This document shows, piece by piece, positions 7,603 through 13,982 of a stretch of 64,000 nucleotides of DNA. The notes beneath the pieces were generated by a model. That model had not been told where the DNA came from. It searched no databases and was given only the letters and a program-made list of their open reading frames with translations. A program made the translations under genes and the position numbers. Location of the stretch: positions 62,001 to 126,000 of the forward strand of contig JAICSS010000005.1 in NCBI GenBank assembly GCA_025936755.1, written 5' to 3'. How positions within the stretch are numbered: position 1 is the stretch's first letter; the number at the start of each line of letters is the position of its first letter. Source of the stretch: Solirubrobacterales bacterium. GTDB lineage: Bacteria; Actinomycetota; Thermoleophilia; Solirubrobacterales; 70-9.

Positions 7603-8262
7603 TCAATTCTTGGAGGATTCCGCAAACAGCGGCTCGAAATCCAGCTCCGCTATCGATTCGACCACCTGGGAGGCGCCCGCCTCGCGTAGCTCCGCCTCCG
7701 AGAAGCCGCCGGTGAGGACCGCCAGGGTGGGGATGCCGGCGGCCTTCGCCGCCTTCACGTCCCAGACCGAGTCGCCGACCATCACCGAGGGATCCTCGTT
7801 GCCGGCCTTCTCCAGCGCGGCGAGGACGAGGTCGGGGTCGGGCTTGGTGCTCTCGACGTCGGCGGCGGTGGTCCAGCCGTCGACCAGCTCGCGCGCCTCC
7901 AGCAGGTCGAGGTAGCGGTCCACCTCCTCCTGCTTGGCGGAGCTGGCGAGGATGACGCTGGCGCCGGCGTCGCGCAGCCGCTCGATCAGCTCCCGCGCCC
8001 CCTCCAGCGGCTCGACTTCGCCGATCAGCTCTCGGTAGGCCTCCGCCTCCGCCTCGCGGATCGCCTCCCCGTCCGCGTCTGCGGCCTCTTCGCCGATCAG
8101 GGAGTCGAGGATCTGGTCGCCGCCCATGCCGATATGGCGGTGGACCTTCCACATCTGAACCGGGTGGCCGTGGGCGTGCAGGGCCCGGTGCCAGGCGAGC
8201 GCGTGGTGGTAATTGGTGTCGACGAGGGTGCCGTCGACGTCCAGGATCGCGTTCAGCGACAT
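7603..8262 (-). CDS. HAD-superfamily hydrolase, phosphoglycolate phosphatase-like
   Basis: 219 residues with all four HAD motifs: ILDVDGTLVDT (nucleophile Asp and acid Asp), ILASSAKQE (motif II Ser), STKPDPD (motif III Lys) and VMVGDSVWDVKAAKAAG (motif IV acidic pair). The alpha-helical cap between residues about 18 and 90 is of the phosphoglycolate phosphatase/beta-phosphoglucomutase type. The substrate is unknown. The ATG at 8262 lies back to back with the DUF72 gene; a GGGTACCC palindrome sits 8 nt upstream of the start. Confidence 0.88.
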   Translation of the reverse strand: MSLNAILDVDGTLVDTNYHHALAWHRALHAHGHPVQMWKVHRHIGMGGDQILDSLIGEEAADADGEAIREAEAEAYRELIGEVEPLEGARELIERLRDAGASVILASSAKQEEVDRYLDLLEARELVDGWTTAADVESTKPDPDLVLAALEKAGNEDPSVMVGDSVWDVKAAKAAGIPTLAVLTGGFSEAELREAGASQVVESIAELDFEPLFAESSKN

Positions 8263-8277
8263 GGATGCGGGGTACCC
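8251..8277. promoter_or_regulatory. SigB/SigF-type promoter of the DUF72 gene with palindromic -10
   Basis: Forward: GTTC 8251-8254, 15-nt spacer, GGGTAC 8270-8275, then the ATG at 8286. The -10 is part of GGGTACCC (8270-8277); on the reverse strand GTTT (8292-8289) and GGGTAC are only 11 nt apart, a weaker promoter for the HAD gene. Confidence 0.5.
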
Positions 8278-9085: not shown

Positions 9086-9316
9086 CTAAGAGGAGAGGCG
9101 CGAGCGGAGGAGATCCTTGCCCTGCTCGGCGCCCTTGCGGCTCGTCTCCTGCGCGCGACGGAAGAAGTCGGCGAGGTCGGAGTCGCCGTCGCGCTCCGCG
9201 TCTTCGATGTAGGTCTCGAGTCGCAGCACGTTGCTGAGGCACTGCTCGACGAACCAGATGACGTTGTAGTCCTTGTCCTTGGTGCCGGTGATGTGGCCGG
9301 CCTCTTGCGTCCCCAT
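9086..9316 (-). CDS. Small conserved-type hypothetical protein, stress island
   Basis: 76 residues from the ATG at 9316, which is preceded by AAGGAG at 5 nt; a GTG 6 nt further upstream is less well placed. The sequence (MGTQEAGHITGTKDKDYNVI; WFVEQCLSNVLRLETYIEDA; FFRRAQETSRKGAEQGKDLL) is helical and soluble and looks like a widespread small actinobacterial protein of unknown function. It is driven by the leftward half of the bidirectional GGGTACCC promoter at 9334-9377. Confidence 0.75.
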   Translation of the reverse strand: MGTQEAGHITGTKDKDYNVIWFVEQCLSNVLRLETYIEDAERDGDSDLADFFRRAQETSRKGAEQGKDLLRSRLSS

Positions 9317-9333
9317 CCTCACTCCTTACGGTC

Positions 9334-9377
9334 GTTTCCGTTCATCCTCCGGGTACCCGGAGGGGAGGGCGGAAAAC
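9334..9377. promoter_or_regulatory. Bidirectional SigB/SigF-type promoter with shared palindromic -10
   Basis: Rightward: GTTT 9334-9337, N13, GGGTAC 9351-9356. Leftward: GTTT 9377-9374, N15, GGGTAC 9358-9353. The two -10 elements overlap in the palindrome GGGTACCC (9351-9358). Leftward it serves the 76-aa gene (start 9316), rightward the membrane protein/acidic protein/USP cluster. Confidence 0.7.
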
Positions 9378-9423
9378 GAAGACGCCGAGTTTCGTGCCCG
9401 CCTGGCAGGGGTACCGGCCCAGC

Positions 9424-9654
9424 ATGTACGTCATCCCGATTGTCCTGATCGTCCTGCTGGCGCTGATCGCGGTCGCCTGGTCGCCGATCTTCGCGCTGAT
9501 CTTCTTCGTGATCGGCTTCGTCGCCTTCCTCGCCTACGCGGGGATGAGCCGGCGCGCCGACGAGAAGCTGGCCCCGCCCGAGCAGCCCGGGCGTCAGCCC
9601 CAGCACCAGGCCCAGGGCGAGACCGGCATGTGGGGGGAGAGGAAGTCCTCGTGA
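9424..9654 (+). CDS. Small two-helix membrane protein
   Basis: 76 residues. Residues about 2-18 (YVIPIVLIVLLALIAVAW) and 20-40 (SPIFALIFFVIGFVAFLAY) are membrane helices; the tail is hydrophilic, rich in Pro, Gln and Arg. I prefer the ATG at 9424 over the in-frame GTG at 9394; neither has a good SD. It overlaps the next gene by 4 bp (GTGA), and a SigB-type promoter lies about 70 bp upstream, so it is probably the first gene of a stress operon ending with the USP-membrane protein. Confidence 0.7.
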   Translation: MYVIPIVLIVLLALIAVAWSPIFALIFFVIGFVAFLAYAGMSRRADEKLAPPEQPGRQPQHQAQGETGMWGERKSS

Positions 9655-11790: not shown

Positions 11791-12153
11791 TCAGGCGGCG
11801 AGGGCGGCGAGGGCGTCGTCGCGGGTGAGGTGTACCGGGATCGAGAGCTCGAGGCCGGTGATCTCCAGCACCCGGCGGACCTGGTCGTTCTGGCTGCAGA
11901 TGACCAGGGTGCGACCCCCCTCACCGCCGTCGAGACGCTGCCAGGCGCGGACGATGAGGGCGATCCCGGTGGAGTCGATGAACTCGCAGCCGGAGAGGTC
12001 GATGAGGACCGAGCCGGTGGCGTCGCCGAGTATCTCCTCGAGCGGAGCCTCCAGTTCAGGGGCGGTGCTCAGATCGAGCTCGCCGCGTACCGAGACGGTC
12101 CGGACGCCGTGCTCGAGATCTCCCACTTTCACCTCGAACGGGGCTGGGTTCAC
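11791..12153 (-). CDS. STAS-domain anti-anti-sigma factor (SpoIIAA/RsbV-like)
   Basis: 120 residues, one STAS domain. VRGELDLSTAPELEAPL is the N-terminal signature, and LSGCEFIDSTGIALIVRAW carries the phospho-acceptor Ser in DSTG. Unphosphorylated, it should bind the RsbW-like kinase encoded divergently at 12338 and free the sigma factor at 13164; the phosphatase at 3703 should reactivate it. GTG start with a TAGCAT box 6 nt upstream and no SD, hence probably leaderless and constitutive, separate from the SigB-type promoter that points at the kinase gene. Confidence 0.93.
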   Translation of the reverse strand: MNPAPFEVKVGDLEHGVRTVSVRGELDLSTAPELEAPLEEILGDATGSVLIDLSGCEFIDSTGIALIVRAWQRLDGGEGGRTLVICSQNDQVRRVLEITGLELSIPVHLTRDDALAALAA

Positions 12154-12193: not shown

Positions 12194-12219
12194 GTTTTGC
12201 CGCCCGGCGGCAGGGGTAA
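12194..12219 (+). promoter_or_regulatory. SigB/SigF-type promoter upstream of the RsbW-like gene
   Basis: GTTT 12194-12197, 16-nt spacer, GGGTAA 12214-12219, directed at the anti-sigma gene, giving a 5' UTR of about 110 nt. This would put the anti-sigma factor under its own sigma factor. Confidence 0.55.
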
Positions 12220-12337
12220 GCAGGCTTTGTAGAAGAGGCGACGGTTATGCTCGCGCCTCTGGATCACGAGCCTCGGCGTTCCTGGGGGCAGGCTGGAACT
12301 TTTGAATACCTCAACCAACGATCGAACGGGGCTCCAA

Positions 12338-13138
12338 ATGTCCCTCCCGGCCCGGGCGGAGAACGTGGCGGTCGTTCGCCACGCGCTAGCCGGCCTGGCG
12401 GAACGGCTGGGGATGGACGAGGCGTCGCTGGCGGACCTGAAGACGGTCGTCACCGAGGCCTGCATGAACGTCGTCCTACATGCCTATGCGGGCAGCGAGC
12501 CGGGGCCGCTCGAGGTCGAGGCCGAGAGCGACGTCGACGGGCTCACGGTCGTGATCCGCGACCACGGCACCGGGATCAGGCCGCGTCCCGACGTCGAGCG
12601 CCCGAGCCTGCGGATCGGGCTGACCCTGATCGCCGCCCTCTCCAGCAGCTTCGAGATCAAGGGCGGCGCCGACAAAGGCACCGAGATCCGCATGCACCTG
12701 CCGCTGCAGGCGCGCGAGGACGGGGCCGTCACGGGCTCCACCTTCGCCGTCACCGCCGACCCCGAGACCCGGATCCGGGTCGGCCCGCCGGAGATCGTCG
12801 GCCCGGTCCTCAGCCGTGCCCTCTCCGCCCTCGCCGCCCGCCAGGACATCAGCGTCGACCGGCTCTCGGACACGATGCTCCTCAGCGACGCGATCTCGGC
12901 CCGGGCGCCCCAGGGCTTCACCGACGGCCACGTCTCGCTCAGCATCGCCGAGCTGCCGGAAGGGATCGAGCTCAAGGTCGGGCCGATGACCCACGGCGGC
13001 GCCGAGCGCCTGCGCGCCAGCTTCGAGCTGCCCGAGGTCGGCGGCTCGCTGGAGAAGCTGACCGACGAGCTGCGGGTCGAGGAGGGCGACGAAGGCGAGT
13101 ACCTCGTCGTCGCGATCTCCTCCTTTTCGAAGAACTAG
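12338..13138 (+). CDS. RsbW-like anti-sigma factor / serine kinase with C-terminal extension
   Basis: 266 residues. Residues 1-125 form a GHKL ATPase fold: DLKTVVTEACMNVVLHAY (N box with Glu and Asn), VIRDHGTGI (G1 box) and LRIGLTLIAALSSSFEIK. These kinases phosphorylate the STAS protein and bind SigB/SigF. Residues about 135-266 add a second half with GHKL-like topology but no ATP motifs, longer than an ordinary RsbW (about 160 residues); it may be a degenerate duplicated domain. ATG 12338 is used because MSLPARAENVAVVR is a family-like start; TTG 12302 is possible. It converges on the sigB gene. Confidence 0.88.
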   Translation: MSLPARAENVAVVRHALAGLAERLGMDEASLADLKTVVTEACMNVVLHAYAGSEPGPLEVEAESDVDGLTVVIRDHGTGIRPRPDVERPSLRIGLTLIAALSSSFEIKGGADKGTEIRMHLPLQAREDGAVTGSTFAVTADPETRIRVGPPEIVGPVLSRALSALAARQDISVDRLSDTMLLSDAISARAPQGFTDGHVSLSIAELPEGIELKVGPMTHGGAERLRASFELPEVGGSLEKLTDELRVEEGDEGEYLVVAISSFSKN

Positions 13139-13163: not shown

Positions 13164-13982
13164 CTACTCGGCGTCGGCCGCGGCGCCGCTCTGCTCGGCG
13201 ACCTCGGCGCGGATCCGCTCCAGCGTCCGTCGCAGGATCCGCGAGACGTGCATCTGCGAGTGGCCGATCCGCTCGGCGATCTGCGACTGCGTCAGATCCT
13301 CGACGAAGCGCAGCTGCAGGACGAGGCGCTCGCGCTCGTCGAGGTGGGGGAGGGCCCCCTCGAGGGCCAATTTGTCCTCGATCAGCTCGTAGCCGGCGTC
13401 CTCGTCTCCGACCCACTCGGAAGCCGGCGATTCTTCGGCGTCCTCGCCGCCGACCGGCCGGTCGAGCGAGAGCGGGCGGCGGTTGTGGTTCGCCTCGAGC
13501 ACCTCGAGCACGTCCGTCGGGTCGACCTCGAGCCGCTCGGCGATCTCGCCGACCGAGGGCGAGCGCTGCAGCTGGACGGTCAGCTCGGCGATCGCTTTCT
13601 CCACTTCGGCCATGCGGTCGTGGAGGCCGCGAGGGACGCGGACGGTCCAGACGCGGTCGCGGAAGTGGCGCTTCAGCTCGCCGAGGATCGTCGGCGAGGC
13701 GAAGGCGGTGAAGGGGGCGCCGCGGTCGGGGTCGAAGCGGTCGATCGCGTTGACGAGCCCGAGGCTCGCCACCTGCAGGAGGTCGTCGAAGGACTCGCTG
13801 GCCCCGCGGTAGCGCAGAGCGAGGTTTTTCGCGAAGGGCAGGTAGCGGCGGACGAGCTCCTCGCGGATCGCCGGGTCGCGGTCTTTGACGAAGCGCGCCC
13901 AGAGTATGCGCTCGCTCGCCAGGCCCTCACCGGGCCCTGGGCTCGACTGGTCTGAGCTTTTCGGCGTCTCTTCGCTTTTCAC
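13164..13982 (-). CDS. SigB/SigF-family alternative RNA polymerase sigma factor
   Basis: 272 residues with regions 2 to 4: region 2 (YLPFAKNLALRYRGASESFD, DLLQVASLGLVNAIDRFDPD and FTAFASPTILGELKRHFRD), region 3 (RSPSVGEIAERLEV), and region 4 with the HTH LTQSQIAERIGHSQMHVSRI. The order and length are those of SigB/SigF/SigG stress and sporulation sigmas; no region 1.1. It should recognise GTTT-N12-16-GGGTA promoters, several of which occur between 2.9 and 12.2 kb. GTG start; no clear -10 is seen in the 179 bp upstream. Its likely regulators are the RsbW-like, STAS and SpoIIE-type proteins here. Confidence 0.93.
   Translation of the reverse strand: MKSEETPKSSDQSSPGPGEGLASERILWARFVKDRDPAIREELVRRYLPFAKNLALRYRGASESFDDLLQVASLGLVNAIDRFDPDRGAPFTAFASPTILGELKRHFRDRVWTVRVPRGLHDRMAEVEKAIAELTVQLQRSPSVGEIAERLEVDPTDVLEVLEANHNRRPLSLDRPVGGEDAEESPASEWVGDEDAGYELIEDKLALEGALPHLDERERLVLQLRFVEDLTQSQIAERIGHSQMHVSRILRRTLERIRAEVAEQSGAAADAE

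What the first reader, a model, noticed from the sequence alone, without database searches (positions are those of the whole stretch)
9334..9377. One palindromic -10 serving two SigB-type promoters back to back
GTTT-N13-GGGTACCC-N15-AAAC reads as a SigB/SigF promoter on both strands, with the two -10 elements sharing the palindrome GGGTACCC. It sits exactly between two divergent stress-island genes. RNA polymerase could load in only one direction at a time, which would tie the two outputs in a fixed ratio. A second GGGTACCC (8270-8277) lies between the HAD and DUF72 genes.
Basis: partly seen in the sequence, partly recalled or inferred. Interest (0 to 1): 0.72.

Follow-up and report, generated by a model that had tools for sequence, protein, structure and literature searches.

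The report
Back-to-back stress promoters, separate -10s
The palindrome is real, but comparison with relatives shows it most likely belongs to one stress-gene promoter only; the opposite gene has its own nearby promoter, so this is a tight pair of ordinary stress promoters rather than one shared switch.

Summary
The letters are as described: GTTT 9334-9337, GGGTACCC 9351-9358, AAAC 9374-9377. No shuffle of the window gives the full motif. In this bacterial family, SigB-type sites with ATG at exactly that distance are about eight times commoner than in the control, which implies leaderless mRNAs. In the closest relative holding the same gene pair, the 9389 promoter and the minus-strand promoter are kept; the palindrome is lost (GGGTAGTC). 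The plus reading through the palindrome also has a 13-nt spacer, where true sites sit at background (mode 15-16). The minus gene's GGGTA site recurs in 59 of 80 orthologues across Actinomycetota; the palindrome is sporadic. Best explanation: two separate back-to-back SigB-type promoters, -35s 11 bp apart, with the palindrome a by-product of the minus promoter's -10. Such compact divergent pairs recur with unrelated partner genes. A post hoc association of palindrome+AAAC with divergent pairs (p about 0.002-0.015) keeps a weak bidirectional role open. The second palindrome (8270-8277), with both start codons 9-10 nt away, is the better shared-10 candidate. No transcript was measured.

The parts
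9353..9377 (-). SigB-type promoter of the minus gene: -35 GTTT (9377-9374), N15, -10 GGGTAC (9358-9353)
   Evidence: site kept in G002; GGGTA upstream in 59 of 80 orthologues vs 2 control windows
9389..9414 (+). SigB-type promoter of the plus gene: -35 GTTT (9389-9392), N16, -10 GGGTAC (9409-9414), 9 nt before ATG 9424 (leaderless geometry)
   Evidence: conserved in G002 with 2 substitutions in 26 nt, both in the spacer
9351..9358 (.). palindrome GGGTACCC: -10 of the minus promoter plus two bases
   Evidence: not conserved in G002
   Evidence: N13 at background; -10 lost in G002
9086..9316 (-). 76-aa conserved small protein without Pfam or NCBIfam model; leader with SD-like AAGGAG
9424..9654 (+). 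76-aa small membrane protein (MYVIPIVLIVLL...), start codon 9 nt after GGGTAC
   Evidence: orthologue MYVIPLVLIVLL in G002
8270..8277 (.). second palindrome GGGTACCC; HAD ATG (8262, -) 9 nt and DUF72 ATG (8286, +) 10 nt from the respective GGGTAC: candidate shared -10
8251..8275 (+). SigB-type promoter of DUF72 gene: GTTC-N15-GGGTAC
   Evidence: GGGTAN 9-12 nt before start also at DUF72 genes of G002, G011, G032, G065, G058, G060
13164..13982 (-). SigB/SigF/SigG-family sigma factor, presumed reader of these promoters
   Evidence: TIGR02980 262.3 bits, cutoff 234.35
12302..13138 (+). RsbW/SpoIIAB-like anti-sigma kinase; SigB-type site GTTT-N16-GGGTA at 12194-12218 upstream
11791..12153 (-). STAS anti-sigma-factor antagonist
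   Evidence: TIGR00377, PF01740

Best explanation
The 107-bp region between the two start codons holds two separate SigB-type promoters, back to back. The minus promoter (-35 9374-9377, -10 9353-9358) drives the leadered 76-aa gene. The plus promoter (-35 9389-9392, -10 9409-9414) drives the small membrane-protein gene, most likely as a leaderless mRNA starting at or near ATG 9424. The palindrome is the minus -10 GGGTAC that happens to be followed by CC, and the plus 'GTTT' is the minus leader's AAAC seen from the other strand. Both genes would rise together because one sigma factor reads both promoters. With -35s only 11 bp apart, two polymerases may hinder each other somewhat. Shown by sequence: elements, spacing, conservation. 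Inferred: promoter activity, start sites, sigma identity, hindrance.
For: The plus promoter at 9389-9414 has N16 and ATG 9 nt after GGGTAC. GTTT-N10-20-GGGTA-N10-ATG gives 87 hits against about 11 in the control over 50 family genomes, spacer mode N15-16; in order-wide GGGTACCC rows ATG peaks sharply at 9 nt (13 of 93). In G002, with the same gene pair, both promoters remain while the palindrome is gone. N13 spacers are at background, 3 of 87. GGGTA lies upstream of the minus gene in 59 of 80 orthologues versus 2 control windows. In the two other orthologues that carry palindrome plus AAAC (G008, G130), the different divergent partner again has its own GGGTAN 9-11 nt before its ATG. 14 of 36 genome sites cluster in 35 kb around the sigma gene.
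Against: Palindrome plus AAAC is found in 3 of 8 divergent orthologues and in none of 46 others (Fisher p 0.002; 0.015 within Thermoleophilia; post hoc), so a secondary bidirectional start is not excluded. The conserved stretch 9394-9423 is an open frame continuous with the gene, so part of its conservation could be coding. Only one relative shares the gene pair. No RNA data.
Confidence: 0.8

Rival explanations
1. One reading: one palindromic -10 is the main promoter for both genes, so polymerase loads in one direction at a time.
For: The motif exists; palindrome+AAAC is associated with divergent orthologue loci; natural promoters with shared -10 elements are common in bacteria (PMC12825309).
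Against: The plus gene has its own conserved, better promoter; palindrome lost in G002; N13 spacer at background; a transcript from the palindrome would carry a roughly 60-nt leader without a well-placed SD.
Confidence: 0.06
2. Mixed model: the two separate promoters do most of the work, and the palindrome adds a weak secondary plus start (a SigB-type version of the bidirectional promoters known for sigma-70), giving tandem plus promoters.
For: Symmetry of -10 elements gives divergent starts in many bacteria (PMC12825309); palindrome+AAAC co-occur in three divergent orthologues, all with N12-13 reverse spacers.
Against: N12-13 spacers are not enriched among leaderless SigB-type sites; AAAC also occurs in the leaders of L003 and L005, which have no divergent SigB-type partner.
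Confidence: 0.14

Closest known systems
SigB/SigF-type promoters of Gram-positive bacteria (B. subtilis GTTTAA-N12-14-GGGWAW; S. coelicolor SigB homologues, PMC8346170)
   Same: GTTT and GGGTA elements; GTTT-to-GGG distances of about 14-17 in the published examples match 15 and 16 here
Bidirectional promoters with shared -10 (Warman/Grainger, PMC12825309)
   Same: a symmetric -10 readable on both strands; predicted starts roughly 18-20 bp apart at the palindrome (my estimate)
   Different: those are sigma-70 promoters defined by mapped starts; here there is no RNA evidence and the plus gene has a separate promoter. That paper explicitly leaves separate divergent promoters out of the class
Leaderless transcripts of actinobacteria, e.g. 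M. smegmatis (PMC6448022)
   Same: transcription start at or near the start codon is common (24% of transcripts there)
   Different: here inferred from the fixed 9-nt distance only

Membership tests
SigB/SigF-type promoter (minus, 9353-9377; plus, 9389-9414) | GTTT-like -35 and GGGTA -10 with N14-17 between GTTT and GGG | tested here: met
   N15 and N16
SigB/SigF-type promoter (minus, 9353-9377; plus, 9389-9414) | conserved upstream of orthologues | tested here: met
   minus: 59 of 80 orthologues; plus: G002 only, the only relative seen with the pair
SigB/SigF-type promoter (minus, 9353-9377; plus, 9389-9414) | transcription depends on a SigB/F-family sigma factor | not testable with these tools
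   sigma gene present at 13164-13982; no expression data
   GGGTACCC
   minus N15 yes; plus N13 at background, 3 of 87
   G002 has GGGTAGTC
   no RNA data
Bidirectional promoter with shared -10 (second palindrome, 8270-8277) | both start codons at the leaderless distance from the shared -10 | tested here: met
   9 nt (HAD) and 10 nt (DUF72)
Bidirectional promoter with shared -10 (second palindrome, 8270-8277) | both readings have a -35 at a used spacing | tested here: not met
   DUF72 GTTC N15 yes; HAD has GTTT only at N11

The most novel reading that the evidence does not exclude
An alternative sigma factor of the SigB type uses truly shared palindromic -10 elements (GGGTACCC) to fire two leaderless mRNAs in opposite directions: at 8270-8277 (HAD/DUF72) in this window and, with the best anatomy seen, in relative G067, where GTTC-N15-GGGTACCC-N15-AAAC has start codons exactly 9 nt from each -10 on both sides (a baeRF family 10 gene and a phosphoribosyltransferase-like gene). 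The 9351-9358 palindrome would be a weaker relative of these.
Probability: 0.3. Interest if true: 0.5.

Novelty: new member of a known kind. Interest (0 to 1): 0.27.

Why it matters
It corrects a plausible but probably wrong reading: a palindromic -10 between divergent genes need not be a shared promoter, because GGGTAC followed by CC is common in GC-rich genomes and the second promoter can sit a few tens of bases away. It gives a usable rule for annotating this stress regulon in Thermoleophilia (start codon 9 nt after GGGTAN), points to a small uncharacterised protein that is a SigB-type regulon marker across Actinomycetota, and names better sites (8270-8277 here; G067) at which shared -10 use by an alternative sigma factor could be tested.

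Tried and rejected
Order-wide search for the exact motif: 3 sites in 232 genomes; the one in G172 lies inside a methylmalonyl-CoA-mutase-like ORF (named from its sequence, not scanned), so it is probably chance. AAAC as a dedicated reverse -35: rejected as the main reading because it also occurs in leaders without palindrome and without divergent SigB-type partner (L003, L005). Palindrome conservation: looked for in about 65-110 orthologues depending on how strictly duplicates are removed; sporadic. Doubly leaderless palindromes: 9 sites versus 3 in controls (one control site is palindromic and counted on both strands); four are upstream of MoaA-like genes with AGGGTACCCT and no GTTT, probably sigma-70-type TAnnnT elements (my inference), and several others lack a long ORF on one side. 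Conservation of the G067 site in its family: the leaderless GGGTAN site of the baeRF gene is common, but the palindrome with a divergent SigB-type partner was seen in G067 only. Literature searches found no paper on SigB promoters in Thermoleophilia and none on shared -10 use by SigB, in a library of open papers only.

Full report
Observation. The sequence at 9334-9377 is GTTT-N13-GGGTACCC-N15-AAAC. The complete motif is found once in the window and in none of 100 dinucleotide shuffles. The setting is a divergent pair: a 76-aa gene on the minus strand starting at 9316 and a 76-aa small membrane protein on the plus strand starting at ATG 9424. The palindrome is nearer to the minus gene (34 bp from its start) than to the plus gene (65 bp).

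A third site. Searching GTTT-N11-18-GGGTA in the window gave seven sites against 0.28 expected. One, at 9389-9413, lies between the palindrome and the plus gene: GTTTCGTGCCCGCCTGGCAGGGGTAC, spacer 16. Its GGGTAC ends 9 nt before ATG 9424.

Why the 9-nt distance matters. In 93 order-wide rows of GTTT-N13-17-GGGTACCC, ATG lies exactly 9 nt after GGGTAC in 13 and in 0-3 at every other distance. In 50 family genomes, GTTT-N10-20-GGGTA-N10-ATG has 87 hits against about 11 for the reversed control (my count of the printed columns), with spacers 14-17 making up 71 of 87 and N15 the mode. This is what a leaderless SigB-type mRNA would look like; leaderless transcripts are common in M. smegmatis (24%, PMC6448022).

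Conservation. G002 is the only relative seen with the same two genes in the same arrangement (minus gene 92% identical). There the plus promoter is kept, with two substitutions in 26 nt, both in the spacer, and the minus promoter is kept as GTTT-N17-GGGTAG, but GGGTACCC has become GGGTAGTC. The plus 'GTTT' at 9334 remains, but without a -10. A caution is that 9394-9423 is also an open frame joined to the gene, and two of the four changes there are at third codon positions, so its conservation could be partly coding.

The minus gene. It has no Pfam or NCBIfam model, yet 435 relatives were confirmed in named genomes, including Actinomadura, Nonomuraea, Geodermatophilus, Amycolatopsis and Rhodococcus (best 80 kept). 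GGGTA lies within 160 nt upstream in 59 of these 80, against 2 in control windows. The base after GGGTA is free (11 G, 9 A, 8 C, 1 T in 29 order-level loci), so the palindrome is not what is conserved.

Other palindromic orthologues. G008 and G130 also have GGGTACCC followed by AAAC at 12-13 nt. In both, the divergent partner is a different gene (an NAD-dependent epimerase, PF01370; and a Ku-like protein, named from its N-terminus only), and in both that partner has its own GGGTAN 9 or 11 nt before its ATG. Thus the palindrome is never the only candidate for the second gene. In nine divergent loci the two -10s are 0 to 58 bp apart, and in several the -35 elements overlap; in L062 the two -10s abut as TTACCCGGGTAA. 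The recurring architecture is therefore a compact pair of separate SigB-type promoters.

After removing near-duplicates, palindrome plus AAAC occurs in 3 of 8 divergent loci and 0 of 46 others (p 0.002), and in 3 of 8 versus 0 of 21 within Thermoleophilia (p 0.015). This was noticed after the fact, the numbers are small, and the grouping depends on a mechanical ORF rule, so I treat it as a lead.

Regulon. The sigma factor at 13164-13982 passes the SigB/SigF/SigG model, with RsbW-like and STAS partners beside it. Fourteen of 36 genome-wide GTTT-N11-18-GGGTA sites lie within 35 kb of contig 3 around it, about 0.5 being expected if spread evenly. That this sigma factor reads these promoters is inference.

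The second palindrome. At 8270-8277 the HAD start (8262, minus) is 9 nt and the DUF72 start (8286, plus) 10 nt from the respective GGGTAC. The DUF72 reading has GTTC at N15, and the leaderless GGGTAN is seen at other DUF72 genes; the HAD reading has GTTT only at N11. In G002 the two genes have separate -10s. A search for both-sided leaderless palindromes gave nine sites in 232 genomes against about three in controls. The best, in G067, has GTTC-N15 and GTTT-N15 on the two sides and long ORFs both ways (baeRF family 10 on one side, a QRPTase_N match on the other). Among 26 of its family's loci examined it too is a singleton.

Function. Published work on E. coli shows that bidirectional promoters do not compete at basal activity, and that strong activation in one direction represses the other (PMC12825309). 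A fixed ratio from mutual exclusion is thus not the expected outcome even if a shared -10 were used. For the pair described here, common control by one sigma factor suffices to co-regulate the genes; steric hindrance between polymerases with -35s 11 bp apart is possible but untested.

Limits. Everything rests on sequence. No start site has been mapped, one relative carries the informative synteny, and several counts use degenerate patterns with a simple reversed-pattern control.

Noticed in passing
window 9086-9316 (-) and loci L080-L159: An uncharacterised 76-aa protein (MGTQEAGHITGTKDKDYNVIWF...) without Pfam or NCBIfam model has 435 relatives in genomes of many Actinomycetota and a SigB-type GGGTA upstream in 59 of the 80 examined: a phylum-wide stress-regulon marker.
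   Followed up: partly
50 family genomes, e.g. window 9389-9426: SigB-type promoters in this family very often have ATG exactly 9 nt after GGGTAN, implying a leaderless branch of the SigB regulon (87 hits against about 11 in control).
   Followed up: partly
window 8270-8277: GGGTACCC with both flanking start codons (HAD, DUF72) at leaderless distance: better candidate for a shared -10 than the reported site.
   Followed up: partly
L189 (G067:C233:2705-2732): GTTC-N15-GGGTACCC-N15-AAAC with ATG 9 nt from each -10 on both sides, between a baeRF family 10 gene and a phosphoribosyltransferase-like gene.
   Followed up: partly
L002 2776-2802 and L161 (G002): The 8-mer GTTTACCC holds the -35 (GTTT) for the HAD gene and, on the other strand, the -10 (GGGTAA of GGGTAAAC) for DUF72: SigB-type -35 and -10 words overlap as reverse complements.
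   Followed up: no
L184, L185, L186, L190: AGGGTACCCT 9-10 nt from starts upstream of MoaA-like genes in four genomes, without GTTT; possibly sigma-70-type leaderless and two-sided -10 elements.
   Followed up: no
G000 contig 3, 39253-74218 (window up to about 12218): 14 of 36 genome-wide GTTT-N11-18-GGGTA sites cluster in 35 kb around the SigB/F/G sigma gene.
   Followed up: partly
window 9319-9345 (-): The leader of the minus gene contains a short ORF, ATGAACGGAAACGACCGTAAGGAGTGA, ending 2 nt before the gene's start codon; not present in this form in G002.
   Followed up: no
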